A stretch of DNA of 64,000 nucleotides from Bacillota bacterium (GTDB lineage: Bacteria > Bacillota > Clostridia > Christensenellales > UBA1242). Positions 16,907 through 53,427 of the stretch are shown here, one piece after another. The DNA lies in contig WRAS01000002.1 of the NCBI GenBank assembly GCA_009780065.1, positions 199,916-263,915 on the forward strand. The letters run 5' to 3'. The notes under the pieces are model-generated. The model was not told the DNA's origin. It saw only the letters and a program-made list of their open reading frames with translations, and searched no databases. How positions within the stretch are numbered: the first letter of the stretch is position 1; the number at the start of each line of letters is the position of its first letter. The position numbers were made by a program, and so were the translations under genes.

Positions 16907-17052
16907 AGAAACGGACAACCCGTAGCAATAGTGTTTGTGTGGCGTATATGAAAAATGCATAAAAATCGCCTAAAAGGCGATTCCTGATCTGCATTTTTCA
17001 TCAAGCGAAGCGTCAGCCAAACAAACACTATTGCTACGGGTTGTCCGTTTCT
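16907..17052. repeat. Long perfect hairpin (32-nt arms plus inner stem-loops)
   Basis: AGAAACGGACAACCCGTAGCAATAGTGTTTGT / ACAAACACTATTGCTACGGGTTGTCCGTTTCT; inner GAAAAATGCA/TGCATTTTTC and AATCGCC-TAAAA-GGCGATT. Confidence 0.9.
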
Positions 17053-18517: not shown

Positions 18518-18656
18518 AAATATGAAAATGAAAAATCAGCCATATTTTATATGGCAATGGAATCCAGAATAAATCGTCAAAAAAATTCTCGGTTTTTATT
18601 TTTCGCACGACATCGAAATAAACAATAAAAAATATCCGTACCGGTATATCATCGAC

Positions 18657-21260: not shown

Positions 21261-21521
21261 ATGATCAAAGACATCCATAAAAAAATAATTGATTTCCTAA
21301 TTCTTTTTATATTCCTTGCGGGACTGTTAATTATTTTGGTATCAATATACACCTTTCTTTTTCCTGTAAGATATCCCTACGATACTTACAGCCCTAGTTT
21401 TGTATACAGACTAACTATGCTTGGTGTTTCCTTACTTGCCACTTGTGTCGCAATGTCGTTGCCAATTATTGGTCTGTCATTCTTACGCGAATATGAAAAG
21501 AAAAATAAAAAAACCGTCTAG
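21261..21521 (+). CDS. Small membrane protein
   Basis: TM-rich ORF; stop codon lies inside an inverted-repeat arm. Confidence 0.5.
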   Translation: MIKDIHKKIIDFLILFIFLAGLLIILVSIYTFLFPVRYPYDTYSPSFVYRLTMLGVSLLATCVAMSLPIIGLSFLREYEKKNKKTV

Positions 21522-21711
21522 GACGACTTCTTGGACATTAAAGAAATAATATTTGTTTGTATCACTCACCAAATACTCTTTTCGACAAAAGCGTTTGTGG
21601 GGGTTTGGGGGGAATCGCAACCCCCCAATGCTTTTTTGTTTCTTTTTTGCCACGCAAAAAAGAAACAGATATTATTTTCATTAATGTCCAAGAAGTCGTC
21701 CTAGACGGTTT
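21511..21711. repeat. Inverted repeat (31-nt perfect arms) enclosing a family A repeat
   Basis: 21511-21541 is the exact reverse complement of 21681-21711. Confidence 0.95.
21585..21666 (+). repeat. Repeat family A copy 3 (nested)
   Basis: aaaagcgtttgtgggggtttggggggaatcgcaaccccccaatgcttttttgtttcttttttgccacgcaaaaaagaaac. Confidence 0.88.
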
Positions 21712-21749
21712 CTTATTATTTTTTGGTCCTCAAAAAGAACAAATAAATT

Positions 21750-28028: not shown

Positions 28029-28106
28029 TTGTTCTTTTTGAGTGTCAAAAAGAACCAAAAAACATTGGGGGGTTGCGATTCCCCCCAAACCCCCACAAAC
28101 GCTTTA
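28029..28106 (-). repeat. Repeat family A copy 4
   Basis: Reverse complement of the family A consensus. Confidence 0.87.
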
Positions 28107-28267
28107 ATATGATATTAACCACTGTAAGTACATGTATTTTCAATGTACGATTATACAAATATTAACAATAGTATAAAGAAATCAACGGTAATTGCCAGCC
28201 ATGGGAAAATATAGCGATTTTTCTTAAGTCATCAAAAATGATAACTATCGCACCAGATATTGTGGCA

Positions 28268-28347
28268 ATAAGCGTTTGTGGGGGTTTGGGGGGAATCGCA
28301 ACCCCCCAATACTTTTTTGTTTCTTTTTTGACATTCAAAAAAGAAAA
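28268..28347 (+). repeat. Repeat family A copy 5
   Basis: agcgtttgtgggggtttggggggaatcgcaaccccccaatacttttttgtttcttttttgacattcaaaaaagaaa. Confidence 0.87.
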
Positions 28348-30954: not shown

Positions 30955-31620
30955 ATGGAATTTATCGAAAACTTTTTTGCAACAATATTTGGCAACAGCC
31001 CAACCCTGGCAACCTTTTTCATCGCCGCAACACCTGTTCTGGAAATAAAGGCCGCAATCCCCTTCGGCACCAGCGACAAACTATGGGGTGCACGTAGCCT
31101 AGACCTCCTCCCCGCCTTGGGCATCAGCATAATATCCTCTGTAATGGTCACCGCAATCATGCTTGCTCTGCTAGTTCCTGTGTTCAACTTGTTAAAGAAA
31201 ATAAAACCCCTTCGACGAACCATTAATTGGCTAGAAACCAAATTCACCATCCGCGCCCAAAAATTATGTAAAGACCACCAGGAACTTTGCCCAGAACCAC
31301 GACACACAAGCAAACCTTGCTGGCCTCTATTAATCCCTCTTTTTATCTTTGCCGCACTACCCGTTCCATTAACTGGTGTTTATACCGCATCCGCCATCGC
31401 GGTTTTCCTGCGTCTGCCATACCTGCACTCCCTGACAACAATTACCTTGGGCACCATCACCAGCGGCTCCATCATAGCCGGAATAACATACCTATTCGGC
31501 GCAAACTCACTCTACGTATTCCACGGGTTCTTGCTATTAACACTCGTATCTTTGACGGCATACATTTTATTTTCATTTTTCAAACGGAAACAATTTCCCA
31601 CACAAAGCAAAAAAGTTTAA
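30955..31620 (+). CDS. Small multi-drug export (COG2426) family membrane protein
   Basis: EFIENFFATIFGNSPTLATFFIAATPVLEIKAAIPFGTS...PLTGVYTASAIAVFL. Confidence 0.85.
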   Translation: MEFIENFFATIFGNSPTLATFFIAATPVLEIKAAIPFGTSDKLWGARSLDLLPALGISIISSVMVTAIMLALLVPVFNLLKKIKPLRRTINWLETKFTIRAQKLCKDHQELCPEPRHTSKPCWPLLIPLFIFAALPVPLTGVYTASAIAVFLRLPYLHSLTTITLGTITSGSIIAGITYLFGANSLYVFHGFLLLTLVSLTAYILFSFFKRKQFPTQSKKV

Positions 31621-31786
31621 AAGCCACTTTGCGCAGCCAAATCGGTGCGGAATTTATTTCCTTTTAAAAAGCCAATTATTCCGCGTGTGTCCCTCTTTAA
31701 TCCTTTGCACACGCGGACAATTGGCAATTATATTAGAATAAATTCTCGGTTTTTTGGCAAGCACAAGTGCTTTTAAACTTTTTTGC
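31607..31786. repeat. Repeat family B copy 1 (180-bp palindromic element with conserved internal loop)
   Basis: GCAAAAAAGTTTAAAAGCCACTTTGCGC...TCGGTGCGGAATTTATT...inner hairpin...AATAAATTCTCGG...GCACAAGTGCTTTTAAACTTTTTTGC. Confidence 0.9.
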
Positions 31787-32604
31787 TAATAATCCCTATT
31801 CAACACCTCATGCTGCCCCAATAATTCACTTGGAACATTTTGACTGCCAAGCGGTGACAACAATCCATGATAATCACTTCCACCTGTTATTATCAATCCA
31901 TTATCTTTACAAATCTTTATCAACTTTTCACGATACTCTTCATCATGTACCCAATGATAGCATTCTATCCCATCAACCTTATTCTTTAACTTTTCAACTA
32001 TCTCCATGTCAAATTGTTTATATTGTGCTGGATGCGCCAAAATTGCGACCCCACCACATGCATGAATTTTATCAATCGCCTCAGACGGAGACATAAAATG
32101 CGACGCCAAATCAAGGAACAAAAAACTATCCCTGTTGTTAAAATGGTCCCACCACAAATGTAATGATTTCACAACACCCTCTGGCCACTGCATCTTGAAA
32201 TCCGAATTATCTAACGCCACAACAGCATTTTCGGTTATTTCTCTTCCCACGGTACCTTCAATCTTCGCAATCACACCAATTTCGGCAAACTTCTTTTCAA
32301 CCAGCCTTCTTTCCAGTGCACCATCATCTCTTACAATGTAATTCTTCATCTTATCCACATCAAAACCATACCCAAGAATATGAACCATGGTCCCATTCAC
32401 ATTGGTGGACATCTCGACACCCGTAATTATCTTTCCGCTGTACAACGCTCGAATCTCTGGGTTTTTCAACACATCATACGCATCCAGACAATCGTGGTCG
32501 GTAATCGAAATCGCCACCAACCCCTTTTCCTCGGCCATTTTTAAAATCGTCGCAACATCCTTCTCCCCATCAGAAAACGTCGTGTGAATATGTAAATCAA
32601 TCAT
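31786..32604 (-). CDS. PHP-domain metal-dependent phosphoesterase
   Basis: MIDLHIHTTFSDGEKDVATIL...ISITDHDCLDAYDV. Confidence 0.92.
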   Translation of the reverse strand: MIDLHIHTTFSDGEKDVATILKMAEEKGLVAISITDHDCLDAYDVLKNPEIRALYSGKIITGVEMSTNVNGTMVHILGYGFDVDKMKNYIVRDDGALERRLVEKKFAEIGVIAKIEGTVGREITENAVVALDNSDFKMQWPEGVVKSLHLWWDHFNNRDSFLFLDLASHFMSPSEAIDKIHACGGVAILAHPAQYKQFDMEIVEKLKNKVDGIECYHWVHDEEYREKLIKICKDNGLIITGGSDYHGLLSPLGSQNVPSELLGQHEVLNRDY

Positions 32605-36735: not shown

Positions 36736-36766
36736 AATATATTTTAACACAACAAAGTGCTTTTCT

Positions 36767-36945
36767 GCAAAAAATTAAAAAGCCCACTTTGCGCCGCCCA
36801 ATCGGTGCGGAATTTATTTCATTTCAAAAAGCCAATTGTCCCGCGTGTGTCCCTTCTGATTCGGTTGCACACGTGGGCAATTGGCTTTTTGTTAAAATAA
36901 ATTCTCGGTTTTTGGGCTAGCACAAGTGGTTTTTTAATTTTTTGC
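36767..36945. repeat. Repeat family B copy 2 (179 bp)
   Basis: GCAAAAAATTAAAAAGCCCACTTTGCG...TCGGTGCGGAATTTATTT...AAATAAATTCTCGGTTTTTGGGC...CAAGTGGTTTTTTAATTTTTTGC. Confidence 0.9.
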
Positions 36946-36948
36946 AAT

Positions 36949-38973
36949 CTAGTTTAGTCTGATAAAATCACGACTCGCATATCCATCCATTCCATTCCAA
37001 TTCACGTGAAAGAAATTTCCCGTCACATCACTTGCAAGAACTGTACTGCCGTTTGGAATCGCACCGATAACTGGGCTGGTCGGCGTTGGACCACTTCTCA
37101 GATTCAAACTACCCCCTTGGGTTACCACCACACCATTCCGTGGCGTTATGTCCACAAAATCGCGCGACACCCACCCAAGTCTTCCATCAAATACGATATG
37201 ATAAAACCCTCCGCTCTCACCCGTTACTTGAACGGTGGAACCATTTGGAATCACACCAATAACTGGCGAGTTTATTGTCGGACCACTGCGAAAGTTCAAA
37301 TTCCCGCCTACGGTGCGAATCGTTCCCAAAAACCTGTCTGGACCCAAACCTGGCGTTGGTGGGGTCGGCGGTTGCGGCGGTGTCGGGCCAGGAGGTATCG
37401 GCGCAGGATCTGGCGACGAAACCTGGATTCCATTAAATACACTATACAAACGATTCCATGTTAATGGCCCAACAACACCGTCCGGATTAAGACCAAAGTT
37501 TCTCTGGAATTCACGAACTGAATTCTCGGTCATCGGACCAAATCTTCCATCCACAACAAGATCACCTGGCACAACTTCGTAATATTGGGCAATGTAATTT
37601 AACAACCATTGTAATTGTCGTACATCATTTCCGCTGGAATTACGTCTCAGAACCACGTTTGGTGGATTAGGCCCTATACCGACACGTACACCTTCACTGT
37701 TAAGGTCTGCCAATCTTGTCACAGCAACCCATATCTGCGTAATCCTGTTCCATGTTGCAGGTCCAATAACACCATCCACAGCCAAACCATTGGTACTTTG
37801 AAATTGTCTAACGGCTGCTTGGGTATCCGCACCAAACACTCCGTTTTCTACCGCAATTCGTGGTATCAGTGGAAAGTTCTGGCGAATACGGTTAAGATAT
37901 GTCTGCATCAATTGAATATAACGTGATGTATCCCCAAGACGCATTGGCGAACCGGGGTACGTTGTTGTAACATCTTGAATTCGATCTGCCGAGCCAATAT
38001 TAACATCAGCACCATAAAAAGATCTAAGAATTTGCAACGCACTATATCCACGCTGCGCCAATGTTACCGTCCCCCATTGTGACAAGCAATTTGGTCCACA
38101 TGCATTGGCACGATAGGTTGTAAACAAAGGGTTTGCAAAACCGATTCTGTGAACATATTGATTAAATACCTCGGCCGCTATTTGTCTAAGATTTTCAAAC
38201 ACATTTCGGCCATATACAAAGAACTGGTCAAACTGTGTTGTGTTTGTAATGTCAAAGTTAAAACCACGACTTCTGTACCATTCTGTGAAAATTCTGTTCA
38301 ATGCAAATGATGTAATTGCATGTATATTCGCACGTAGCGAGGCATCAGGCCATGTTGCAAAAATCTCACTACTTGCTACGTTTGCTATGTAATCTACAAA
38401 TGGAACACGGACATTTCTTGCGGCGTTATTTGTGGGCGCACCAAGACGAACCGTTATATACGTTGGAATAATAACTTGACGTACACCTACAGCAGGACCA
38501 GAAATCGTACCGCTCTGCAATGGTTGCAATACCGCAGGTGCGGGTATCCCAATTACATCAATGTCATCCACAACAGTCACCGTATCCGTCACAGTCGCAG
38601 GATCACGATGACAAACGTCCGCACGCGAGTGAATCATGATATCGTTGTCCTCGGAAAATCCAGGATGCATATGCACTGGAAGATAACTGGCTTCGCCGGC
38701 AAGAATTTCCAAACCACTAACTGTCACCGGCTCGAACCCTTCCGCAGTTATACAAACATTATAAAGCGAATAACCACGTTCTGCGGTATCCGGATTATAT
38801 GTAAGCGATTGGTCTGGTGCACTTAACTCTATGTATTCTGTCATTCCATCTTCATTTGTTAATTGGTCCGCGATTACGTTACCAGACTGATCCCTAGTAA
38901 TTACCCTCGCCCCTTTTATCGGCAGCATCTCCATCGCCGTCGTAACTTGCGCACGTTGTCTACCTGTTGGCAT
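36949..38973 (-). CDS. SleC-like cortex-lytic/peptidoglycan-binding protein with two PG-binding_1 domains and two SH3 domains
   Basis: N-terminal LPIKGARVITRDQSGNV; GVFGADTQAAVRQFQSTNGLAVDGVIGPATWNRI repeat; two LNLRSGP SH3 repeats. Confidence 0.78.
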   Translation of the reverse strand: MPTGRQRAQVTTAMEMLPIKGARVITRDQSGNVIADQLTNEDGMTEYIELSAPDQSLTYNPDTAERGYSLYNVCITAEGFEPVTVSGLEILAGEASYLPVHMHPGFSEDNDIMIHSRADVCHRDPATVTDTVTVVDDIDVIGIPAPAVLQPLQSGTISGPAVGVRQVIIPTYITVRLGAPTNNAARNVRVPFVDYIANVASSEIFATWPDASLRANIHAITSFALNRIFTEWYRSRGFNFDITNTTQFDQFFVYGRNVFENLRQIAAEVFNQYVHRIGFANPLFTTYRANACGPNCLSQWGTVTLAQRGYSALQILRSFYGADVNIGSADRIQDVTTTYPGSPMRLGDTSRYIQLMQTYLNRIRQNFPLIPRIAVENGVFGADTQAAVRQFQSTNGLAVDGVIGPATWNRITQIWVAVTRLADLNSEGVRVGIGPNPPNVVLRRNSSGNDVRQLQWLLNYIAQYYEVVPGDLVVDGRFGPMTENSVREFQRNFGLNPDGVVGPLTWNRLYSVFNGIQVSSPDPAPIPPGPTPPQPPTPPTPGLGPDRFLGTIRTVGGNLNFRSGPTINSPVIGVIPNGSTVQVTGESGGFYHIVFDGRLGWVSRDFVDITPRNGVVVTQGGSLNLRSGPTPTSPVIGAIPNGSTVLASDVTGNFFHVNWNGMDGYASRDFIRLN

Positions 38974-43082: not shown

Positions 43083-43264
43083 ACCTTGTCAAACTGTATT
43101 AAACAACAAGTATCCAGAAACAGAGCCTAGTCATCCAGACCAAAGTCGGGTAAAACGAAGCGAAGCGGAGAGACCCAGCGAGAATAGCAAGCATGAGTAT
43201 CATCAATAATACACATACCATTGCAGACACAAATACAAAGTAACTCAACAGAAACTCTTCCAAA

Positions 43265-43386
43265 CACGTCATTGCGAGCGAAGCGAAGCAATCCAGTATA
43301 ATTATTTATACTTGGTTATTGCAATGAACATCCAAGACTAAATAACATCACTGAATCGCCACGCCCTTCGGGCTCGCGATGACGTG
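43265..43386. repeat. Intergenic palindromic repeat of the 'GTCATTGCGAGCGAAGCGAAGCAATCC' type
   Basis: CACGTCATTGCGAGC / GCTCGCGATGACGTG arms. Confidence 0.75.
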
Positions 43387-43486
43387 TACGTGGCTTTTAT
43401 GTTTTGAATTTAACCAGTGGGAACAGATGCCCACAAAATAAATCGTCAAAAGAAAAATTAACTCAATTCGGTAAAAAGCCATGATA

Positions 43487-43664
43487 TTGTTAAAATTCCG
43501 CCAATAATAATTTTGAATATTTTATCGGTGCGGAACTTTTATCATTCAAAAATGTCATTTATCTATGAGGGGCCCTCTTAAACCTCATAGATAAATGACA
43601 TTGTATTTACAAAAGTTCTCGGTTTTAAAGTATGAAAAATTTTGTATTGGCGGAATTTTGGCAA
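43487..43664. repeat. Repeat family B copy 3 (178 bp, different arm sequence)
   Basis: AAAATTCCGCCAATA...TCGGTGCGGAACTTTT...AATGTCATTTATCTATGAGG hairpin...AAAAGTTCTCGGTTTT...TATTGGCGGAATTTT. Confidence 0.9.
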
Positions 43665-43671
43665 ATAAAAA

Positions 43672-45756
43672 CTACTCTCTCCCCTGATAAAATTCTTCTA
43701 AATCTTCATCAGGATTGTCCCAGTCATATCCACTTCCATCGGTAGATGGTTTGAACTTCTCTTCTTCCTCGTCTTCTTCATATTCATCTTCTTCGTCGTA
43801 TATGTCATCTTCACCATCTTGTTCTTCATCTTCCTCTGATTCCTCTTCTTCAGACTCTTCCTCTGCCTCTTCCGTCTTTTCCTCGGAATCCTCTTGCTTT
43901 TTTTCTTCGACCTTTTCTTCTATCTGCTCTTTTTCTTTAACTTCTTTTATTTTTTCTTCTACAACAGAAACAGACTCCTCTTCCAACTCCTGCGCCACTG
44001 GCTCCGATTCTCTGATTTTAGATTTCCGTTCGTATTTAACTTCTACTATTTTTTCGACGATGATTTCTTCCTCATCTTCTTCCTGTTCCTCTATCTCTTC
44101 AATCTCTGCCTCAACTTCCTCGTCTATTTCATCATCTTCTTCTACTTCTTCGACAATCTGACTCTTCTCGATAACTGGTTCCGGCATTTTTACAACAACA
44201 GATTCTTCTATCTCAACTTCTATTTCCTCATCCGCTTCAATTTCTTCCTCGATTTCTTCGTCTTCTGTTTCTTCTTGAATTTCCTCTTCGGCTATCTCTT
44301 CTTTTTTATCTTCTATAACCAAAGCAAGTTCTTCTTCAATCTCTTCCTCTTCGTCATCTTCCTCCACAATCGGCACCATAGTCTGCCCCCTTGCACGTCG
44401 GGCCTCTTGCATTATTAAACTCTCTTTAACTTCAACCTTGCCAAATTCGACCTCAGGCTCTGGTTCTTCTGCCACAGATTCTTCCACCTCGGCATGATAA
44501 CTGGCTTCAATAATTTTGTCCAGATCCACAACCTCTTTCACCACATTAATTTTCTCAACAATAACCTGCTCGGCCACTTCTTCGGTTTTAACTGGTGCTA
44601 TTACGGTCTTTGGTGCGGCTTTGGCTTCCGACTCTGTCGAAACACCCTCACGCCACCCAAGTTTATTTTCCTGCCTTGCCCTTGCAATAGCAAGTGCGTT
44701 CGGCGGAACACTGGCGGTAATTGTACTGCCTGCCGCAATGAACGCCCTATTTTCCACAATGATAGGAGCAACAAGGTTCGAGTTACTTCCAATAAAGACC
44801 TCGTCCCCCACAATGGTTTGATTCTTTTTCTCGCCGTCATAGTTACAAAACACCACACCACAACCAATATTACAATCCCGTCCAACAATTGCATCCCCCA
44901 CATACGAAAGATGCGAAATCTTGGTTCCATTTCCAATGGTCGAATTCTTAATTTCTACGAAATTTCCAATGCGGCAATTCTCTCCTATATGGGTACCAAT
45001 CCTAAGATGCGCATACGGACCTACTACGCTGCCGCTTTCTACCTTGGCACCATGAAGTTGACTTGCATTAATTGTGCTGGAAATTATTGTACATCCACGA
45101 CCTATTCGTGTGCCTTGTTTAATTACTGTGCGGCCTTCTAAACGTACATTGTCCTCGATAATTACATCACGTTCAATCTGAACATCTGCATCGATATGAA
45201 CCGTATCGGGGTCATTGATTAATACACCATTTTCCGCATGCAAGGTATTAATTCGTGCACGTGTAATTTTTATTGCCCGCGCAAGTTGTGAATAATTATA
45301 AACCGCGACAAAATCATCCTCATCCAATTCTGGCAACTCTACAATTTCAATCTTGCCGCCACCACGAACATATTCCGTGTCAAAGATCCATCCACGCGGC
45401 ATACGTACCGCTTTGTGCCCAAATGCAGATACCATACCATATGCTTGTTCAATTGTTTCTTTTGTAAGCAGCGGCATATCCGCATAAACAACCATTGTGT
45501 ATTGATACTCGCCAGAATATTTCTTAACCAAAGAAACTATGTCATCGTTTTCACGCACATCCACTTTGCGATATCTGTACCCAAACAAAGTATTATCCAG
45601 CCATGTTTCCATGCTGCGCCCACATATTTCTTTCTCGTACGGATTTGCGCACGAAAATCCAACAAGTTTTGGAATTAACACAAGAATAAATAACGAATCC
45701 TCGTTCAATTCCTCAAGTTTTTTTTCTACGGTCATTGTCTGCATCTCAACCCCCAC
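43672..45756 (-). CDS. GlmU-like protein: degenerate nucleotidyltransferase domain, intact LbH acetyltransferase domain, ~270-aa acidic tail
   Basis: NCRIGNFVEIKNSTIGNGTKISHLSYVGDAIVGRDCNIGCGVVFCNYDGEKKNQTIVGDEVFIGSNSNLVAP; no GxGTRM signature. Confidence 0.9.
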   Translation of the reverse strand: MGVEMQTMTVEKKLEELNEDSLFILVLIPKLVGFSCANPYEKEICGRSMETWLDNTLFGYRYRKVDVRENDDIVSLVKKYSGEYQYTMVVYADMPLLTKETIEQAYGMVSAFGHKAVRMPRGWIFDTEYVRGGGKIEIVELPELDEDDFVAVYNYSQLARAIKITRARINTLHAENGVLINDPDTVHIDADVQIERDVIIEDNVRLEGRTVIKQGTRIGRGCTIISSTINASQLHGAKVESGSVVGPYAHLRIGTHIGENCRIGNFVEIKNSTIGNGTKISHLSYVGDAIVGRDCNIGCGVVFCNYDGEKKNQTIVGDEVFIGSNSNLVAPIIVENRAFIAAGSTITASVPPNALAIARARQENKLGWREGVSTESEAKAAPKTVIAPVKTEEVAEQVIVEKINVVKEVVDLDKIIEASYHAEVEESVAEEPEPEVEFGKVEVKESLIMQEARRARGQTMVPIVEEDDEEEEIEEELALVIEDKKEEIAEEEIQEETEDEEIEEEIEADEEIEVEIEESVVVKMPEPVIEKSQIVEEVEEDDEIDEEVEAEIEEIEEQEEDEEEIIVEKIVEVKYERKSKIRESEPVAQELEEESVSVVEEKIKEVKEKEQIEEKVEEKKQEDSEEKTEEAEEESEEEESEEDEEQDGEDDIYDEEDEYEEDEEEEKFKPSTDGSGYDWDNPDEDLEEFYQGRE

Positions 45757-47767: not shown

Positions 47768-47881
47768 ATGTGATTTTTAAGTGTACATCCGCAACCTTAG
47801 ACCGTGCCAAGGAGACCCCTTGTTTTCTATGGGCTCCGAGGTGATAGGTCGCAGTTGCGGATGTACACTTAAAAATCACAT
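47768..47881. repeat. Long rod-like hairpin (27-nt perfect arms)
   Basis: TGTGATTTTTAAGTGTACATCCGCAAC / GTTGCGGATGTACACTTAAAAATCACA; inner GACC/GGTC and GGAGACCC/GGGCTCC. Confidence 0.92.
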
Positions 47882-52647: not shown

Positions 52648-53427
52648 TTAACTTGCATCCCCATATCCCTCTAACAATAACTTGTCCGCGATAAAGCCAA
52701 TGAACTCTCCATTAGTTGGTTTGTCATTTTGGGAAAACGCCGATACATTAAAAATCTCGTTAATCTTGTGCAATCTGCCGCGATTCCAACCCACTTCGAT
52801 TGCATGACGTATTGCACGCTCCACTTTGCTACTGGTTGTGTTAAAAATCCTTGCAATCGTTGGATAAAGTTGCTTTGTAATTGCGTTAATCATGGAATTA
52901 TCACTTACAATTAATTTTACACCCTCGCGCAGGTATGAGTATCCCTTGATATGTGCGGGGATACCGATTTCAATAAACAACTTGGATAGTTTATCATCCA
53001 ATTTTTTATTGGAAATTGGCGGGAATTCTTTCATAACTTTGGCTGCTTTTGTTTTGGGCTCGACCTCACCCTTTAAAAATAAAATCTGCTTTTTCAAAGA
53101 ATTGGCTTCAAACGGTTTAATCATATAGTGATCCACACCAACGTCCACCATACGTTTTATCGCTTTATCAGAAAAGGCACTGGAAAACATTATAACGCTA
53201 ATCTCGGGTGCGTTTTCCTTTACAAATTCACAAAATGAAATACCACACATCTTTTTCATGGCAAAGTTACAAACCACAACACAGGGTTTTGTTTCCTTTA
53301 ACTTTTCCAATGCATCTTCACCATCATCTGTTGCAGCGACAACCTCGAACCTGGCATCGTCCTTAAACATAGCCTCTAGTTTCAACTTTTCCTCGAAATT
53401 GCTTTCTGCAATTAAAATTCTTGTCAA
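52648..53427 (-). CDS. spo0A: Sporulation master regulator Spo0A with degenerate receiver
   Basis: Intact DNA-binding domain FNTTSSKVERAIRHAIEVGWNRGRLHKINEIF...KPTNGEFIGFIADKL; receiver Asp position is Asn54; TTG start. Confidence 0.93.
   Translation of the reverse strand: MTRILIAESNFEEKLKLEAMFKDDARFEVVAATDDGEDALEKLKETKPCVVVCNFAMKKMCGISFCEFVKENAPEISVIMFSSAFSDKAIKRMVDVGVDHYMIKPFEANSLKKQILFLKGEVEPKTKAAKVMKEFPPISNKKLDDKLSKLFIEIGIPAHIKGYSYLREGVKLIVSDNSMINAITKQLYPTIARIFNTTSSKVERAIRHAIEVGWNRGRLHKINEIFNVSAFSQNDKPTNGEFIGFIADKLLLEGYGDAS

What the first reader, a model, noticed from the sequence alone, without database searches (positions are those of the whole stretch)
31607..31786. Family B: ~179-bp palindromic element with conserved asymmetric internal loop (copy 1)
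Three intergenic elements of near-constant length (180, 179, 178 bp at 31607, 36767, 43487) fold as nested stems around a conserved internal loop: 5' side TCGGTGCGGAA, 3' side TTCTCGGTTTT. The flanking stem changes by compensation (GGAATTTATT/AATAAATTC versus GGAACTTTT/AAAAGTTC), and the outer arms and inner hairpin of copy 3 are unrelated in sequence to copies 1-2 but keep the same architecture. Constant length, changing arms and a fixed loop suggest selection on structure: a structured RNA, a hairpin-DNA substrate (REP/IS200-like), or a protein-binding site. I do not recognise it as a known family.
Basis: partly seen in the sequence, partly recalled or inferred. Interest (0 to 1): 0.82.

Follow-up and report, generated by a model that had tools for sequence, protein, structure and literature searches.

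The report
Mobile-looking hairpin repeats with fixed loop
A small bacterial genome carries eight copies of an unlisted ~180-base hairpin element whose stem letters change from copy to copy on both sides at once while one odd internal loop stays the same; it is probably a small, species-specific jumping or copied DNA repeat, not a known RNA.

Summary
All three palindromes exist, fold far better than shuffled sequence (z about -9 to -12), and share the internal loop TCGGTGCGGAA / TTCTCGG. A covariance model found more; the genome has eight copies (two decayed, one half-lost), all on one 269-kb contig, on one strand, just past the 3' end of a minus-strand gene. Copy 3 is not unrelated to copies 1-2: its inner hairpin aligns with theirs, with 18 of 42 pairs changed on both sides. 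The loop never differs between the two subfamilies, whereas 36 of 75 stem positions do. Nothing matches in other genomes of the order or phylum sampled, nor at Rfam gathering scores. In same-genus genomes two of the host gene pairs sit nearly abutted without it.

Best reading: a species-specific, non-autonomous palindromic repeat (MITE-like in behaviour) with a structure-specific recognition loop, its arms kept complementary at DNA level. Three other palindrome families in this genome show a related pattern: conserved cores or loops with stems that change on both sides. No Y1 or IS110 transposase was found, the mobiliser is unknown, and a structured RNA or a 3'-end terminator role is not excluded.

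The parts
31606..31787 (+). Copy 1 (type 1), whole palindrome; left arm holds the last codons (SKKV*) of the upstream + gene
   Evidence: 19-bp perfect outer arms
36766..36946 (+). Copy 2 (type 1), whole palindrome
   Evidence: 84.5% identical to copy 1 over 181 bp
43487..43664 (+). Copy 3 (type 2), whole palindrome; core shared with C2:183999 and C2:3918, outer ~24 bp not shared with C2:183999
31642..31652 (+). 5' strand of conserved internal loop, copy 1 (TCGGTGCGGAA)
31743..31753 (+). 3' strand of conserved internal loop, copy 1 (TTCTCGGTTTT)
36802..36812 (+). 5' loop strand, copy 2
36902..36912 (+). 3' loop strand, copy 2
43525..43535 (+). 5' loop strand, copy 3
43616..43626 (+). 3' loop strand, copy 3
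43551..43602 (+). Inner hairpin of copy 3 (20 bp perfect); homologous to the inner hairpins of copies 1-2, with two-sided changes
31786..32604 (-). PHP-domain gene whose 3' end abuts copy 1
36949..38973 (-). Peptidoglycan-binding/SH3 protein gene whose 3' end abuts copy 2
43672..45756 (-). GlmU-like hexapeptide gene whose 3' end abuts copy 3

Best explanation
A species-specific, non-autonomous palindromic DNA repeat (MITE-like in behaviour). The core (~130-145 bp: nested stems, the invariant internal loop CGGTGCGGAA/TTCTCGG and an apical CCCT) is taken to be the recognised part. As a folded single strand or cruciform it would be bound by an unidentified trans-acting mobiliser that reads the mismatched loop and not the stem letters. 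New copies settle next to gene 3' ends, where the outer arms may act as terminators, and old copies decay. Arm complementarity is kept or rebuilt at DNA level (template switching between the arms, or an inverted copy of flanking DNA). That would explain why stems change on both sides at once and why some copies have near-perfect arms of their own. Shown: copy number, two subfamilies, two-sided changes, loop invariance, decay, restriction to this genome in the samples searched, two nearly abutted gene pairs in relatives. Inferred: mobility in trans, loop recognition, arm rebuilding, terminator use.
For: Eight copies in one genome in two subfamilies, two decayed and one half-lost. No match at the thresholds used in the rest of 98 family, 297 order and 399 phylum genomes, four of the same genus included. 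greA|tatD gap 14 nt (one relative) and gyrA|yqgF about 0 and 47 nt (two relatives), against 210 and 274 here with the element. Compensation 18/42 pairs, 93.6% of cells paired versus 34-47% when slid; 36 two-sided against 3 one-sided changes. Loop 12/13 invariant versus stems 29/75 (p = 3e-4). Type-2 copies at C2:183970 and copy 3: cores 81% identical, outer arms not alike beyond shuffles (p = 0.24) yet 31/31 and 18/20 complementary. Other palindrome families in the genome show a related pattern.
Against: No mobiliser identified: no Y1 or IS110 transposase found in a 91.5%-complete genome; other transposase families not searched. No convincing target-site duplication seen. All copies lie on one contig and one strand, odd for freely mobile DNA. 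Same-genus genomes are distant (about 45-77% protein identity), so the gene-pair evidence is indirect and rests on two loci; in other relatives those pairs are not adjacent in that order. A protein-free mechanism (template switching alone) could maintain arms without a mobiliser.
Confidence: 0.52

Rival explanations
1. Structured RNA element in 3' UTRs: a bidirectional terminator or mRNA 3'-end stabiliser/processing hairpin whose conserved loop binds an RNA-binding protein or nuclease.
For: All eight copies lie directly downstream of a minus-strand gene in the same sense; outer arms have A-tract/stem/T-tract form; covariation.
Against: 8/8 position is expected at 0.70^8, about 0.06, given the gene strand bias. 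Relatives show no element at the same genes, and two of the gene pairs are nearly abutting in some of them. Only 3 one-sided (G-U type) against 36 two-sided changes. No G-T/A-C strand bias in intact copies once the loop is left out (about 8 versus 7). No Rfam match at gathering score; only generic hairpin families far below it.
Confidence: 0.2
2. Independent small-RNA gene family on the + strand with loop-mediated function.
For: Discrete length, invariant loop, several copies.
Against: Promoter-like sites are near shuffle level and not consistently placed; some copies have decayed; no conservation in relatives.
Confidence: 0.08
3. Palindromes maintained only by mutation: template switching keeps arms identical without selection or a mobiliser, and copies arose by ordinary segmental duplication.
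For: Template switching creates and maintains hairpins and homogenises arms (PMC8794818, PMC8604942); few one-sided intermediates.
Against: A purely neutral process should also erase the mismatched loop, which is invariant across subfamilies that differ at 48% of stem positions; copies sit in unrelated gene contexts without shared flanks.
Confidence: 0.12
4. A chromosomal DNA structure site (replication, segregation or nucleoid-protein site), explaining one strand and one replichore arm.
For: 8/8 on one strand of one contig with uniform negative GC skew.
Against: No counterparts on the other contigs; not conserved in any relative searched.
Confidence: 0.08

Closest known systems
MITEs and palindromic small mobile repeats of bacteria (RPE, ERIC/RU-1, YPAL/RU-2, NEMIS; reviews PMC10969869, PMC2229807)
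   Same: 100-200 bp, mostly intergenic, long stem-loop, several copies, lineage-restricted; YPAL is ~168 bp
   Different: To my knowledge those keep arm sequence between copies (not checked here). Here arms differ between subfamilies while an internal loop is invariant. No target-site duplication or parent IS found.
REPINs / REP elements with RAYT transposases (PMC3116915, PMC3733652)
   Same: Hairpin repeats, proposed single-strand recognition, intergenic
   Different: REPs are 20-40 bp; a Y1-type transposase is expected and was not found
Template-switch-made hairpins (PMC8794818, PMC8604942)
   Same: Simultaneous two-sided stem changes, stem extension, arms kept identical
   Different: Describes a mutation process, not a repeated element with an invariant internal loop
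SPRITE (rho-independent terminator-like repeats of S. pneumoniae; PMC10969869)
   Same: Terminator-like repeat
   Different: Sequence not compared here; terminator function of the present element untested

Membership tests
MITE (classical, DDE-type) | Several non-coding copies of a short inverted-repeat element | tested here: met
   8 copies, ~130-180 bp
MITE (classical, DDE-type) | Terminal inverted repeats conserved between copies | tested here: inconclusive
   Type 1 copies share them; type 2 copies do not
MITE (classical, DDE-type) | Target-site duplication | tested here: inconclusive
   None apparent by eye at c1, c2, c3 and C2:183970; relatives too diverged for aligned empty sites
MITE (classical, DDE-type) | Related autonomous IS with the same ends | tested here: inconclusive
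   No longer element found with the core model or BLAST; DDE families not searched
REP/REPIN-RAYT or IS200/IS605 derivative | Y1 transposase in the genome | tested here: not met
   PF01797 not found in the assembly, 91.5% complete
REP/REPIN-RAYT or IS200/IS605 derivative | 20-40 bp palindromic unit with tetranucleotide tag | tested here: not met
   Unit is a ~180 bp nested palindrome
Known Rfam RNA | Covariance-model match at gathering score | tested here: not met
Intrinsic terminator | GC stem followed by T run | tested here: inconclusive
   Arms of C2:183970 and copy 3 have that form; the simple scan cannot see it because of the long insert
Intrinsic terminator | Terminates transcription | not testable with these tools
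   needs RNA 3'-end data

The most novel reading that the evidence does not exclude
The genome hosts a class of mobile hairpins in which a conserved core with a mismatched recognition loop moves and turns 20-34 bp of its new flank into an inverted copy, so that an insertion can build its own perfect outer stem. Several families in this genome (B, I3, I4, perhaps I5) would share this mechanism.
Probability: 0.2. Interest if true: 0.82.

Novelty: new variant of a known kind. Interest (0 to 1): 0.5.

Why it matters
Perfect compensatory change is usually read as RNA selection. Here several DNA repeat families in one genome show two-sided stem replacement around conserved loops or cores, with almost no wobble intermediates in family B. 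If strain comparisons confirm that the arms are rebuilt at insertion, this would be a new way for small elements to settle, and a warning that covariation alone does not prove a functional RNA.

Tried and rejected
Phages and plasmids: no match. Insertion into pre-existing terminators or palindromes: considered for the private outer arms; disfavoured because every perfect inverted repeat with arms of 20 bp or more found in ~935 kb encloses a repeated element or lies within one, and because greA-tatD and gyrA-yqgF have little or no room for a terminator in some relatives. A first G-U count by folding one strand suggested a strand preference; a strand-symmetric recount removed it. attC, group II intron and k-turn readings were considered by eye and dropped for lack of their motifs. 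Contamination by contig C2: its tetranucleotide profile matches the other contigs.

Full report
What is there. The window is bases 199916-263915 of contig C2 (269 kb) in a 1.20-Mb, 18-contig assembly. The three palindromes exist and are extreme folders. Both loop strands are identical in all three, and the combined pattern has zero chance expectation in the window.

More copies. TCGGTGCGGAA occurs 5 times in the genome, all on C2 +. A covariance model of the core adds three: C2:183999, C2:3918 (3' half lost) and C2:47080 (strongly decayed). Two subfamilies result. Type 1: window copies 1 and 2, C2:24954, C2:79807 (partly decayed) and C2:47080. Type 2: copy 3, C2:183999, C2:3918. All eight are on the + strand of one contig that makes up 22% of the assembly; this clustering is unexplained. 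C2 has uniform negative GC skew and 74% minus-strand genes by a crude ORF call.

Structure. In the six better copies 18 of 42 pairs show two-sided changes and 93.6% of cells pair, against 34-47% when partners are slid by 1-3 columns. The internal loop is 12/13 invariant and never differs between subfamilies; stems are 29/75 invariant and differ at 36/75. So copy 3's inner hairpin is a diverged homologue, not an unrelated one. There are 36 two-sided and 3 one-sided cell changes. Strand-symmetric mismatch counts give no preference for either strand as RNA. Caveat: the covariation rests mainly on one split, type 1 against type 2, so the number of independent events is unknown.

Outer arms. Type 1 copies share their outer arms. 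The type 2 copies at C2:183970-184156 and copy 3 have 81%-identical cores, but outer arms with no similarity beyond shuffles, each complementary to its own partner (31/31 and 18/20).

A related pattern elsewhere in the genome. Family I4 (window 47768-47881, C10:23547, C4 near 52900) keeps a CAACCTTAGACCG...AGGTC.CAGTTG core with arms of 28/28, 23/23 and 18/24 complementarity, and no arm similarity beyond shuffles in the one pair tested. Family I3 (window 16907-17052, C4:980-1114, C1 near 348500) has perfect arms of 32 and 34 bp; the C4 arms are weakly similar to the window copy's (p = 0.0065), and the decayed C1 copy looks by eye to share the window copy's right arm. Family I5 (C2 near 121700, C4 near 69400) shows compensating nested stems by eye. 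Every perfect inverted repeat with arms of 20 bp or more in the ~935 kb scanned encloses a repeated element or lies within one, which speaks against insertion into ready-made palindromes.

Distribution and gain. No match at the thresholds used outside this genome in samples of 98 family, 297 order and 399 phylum genomes (this one counted in each), four of the same genus among them. Searches over 40 genomes use stricter filters that lose weak matches. In same-genus genomes greA and tatD are 14 nt apart in one, and gyrA and yqgF about 0 and 47 nt apart in two, against 210 and 274 here with the element between. The host genes (alaS, topA, rseP, gyrA, greA, a PHP gene, a peptidoglycan-binding gene, a glmU-like gene) are ordinary; the PHP, peptidoglycan-binding, glmU-like, greA and topA assignments were tested against Pfam, the other three are named from their translations. 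Every copy follows the 3' end of a minus-strand gene, which gene orientation alone gives with probability about 0.06.

What it most likely is. A species-specific non-autonomous palindromic repeat: it behaves like a MITE, but membership in a known MITE or REP family is not established. No Y1 or IS110 transposase was found; other transposase families were not searched. The invariant mismatched loop argues for recognition of the folded form. Two-sided stem changes with few intermediates argue for arm renewal at DNA level, a process described for template switching (PMC8794818, PMC8604942). RNA and terminator roles remain possible; terminator form is visible in the outer arms of two type 2 copies but untested.

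Noticed in passing
window 47768-47881; C10:23547-23651; C4 near 52864-52932: Palindrome family I4: conserved CAACCTTAGACCG core inside outer arms that differ per copy (28/28, 23/23 and 18/24 complementary).
   Followed up: partly
window 16907-17052; C4:980-1114; C1 near 348480-348582: Palindrome family I3 with perfect 32-34 bp arms and a 27-nt conserved CATTTTTCATCAAGCGAAGCGTCAGCC; three copies here, none in the other genomes of a 297-genome family sample.
   Followed up: partly
C2:121679-121854 and C4:69385-69576: Palindrome family I5, nested stems that appear to change on both sides between the two copies.
   Followed up: no
window 21498-21724 and 28047-28327, with related copies on C2, C4 and C1: Abundant G-rich repeat (GGGGGTTTGGGGGG) forming long inverted pairs.
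   Followed up: no
window 43260-43400; C10 near 24199: Repeat with CATTGCGAGCGAAGC motifs, a long palindrome on C10.
   Followed up: no
C4:5797-6983: Repeated TGTTCCACGTGGAACA, which looks like parS, so C4 is probably near the replication origin.
   Followed up: no
window 18586-18596: Solitary TTCTCGGTTTT without the partner loop strand, perhaps a relic or chance.
   Followed up: partly
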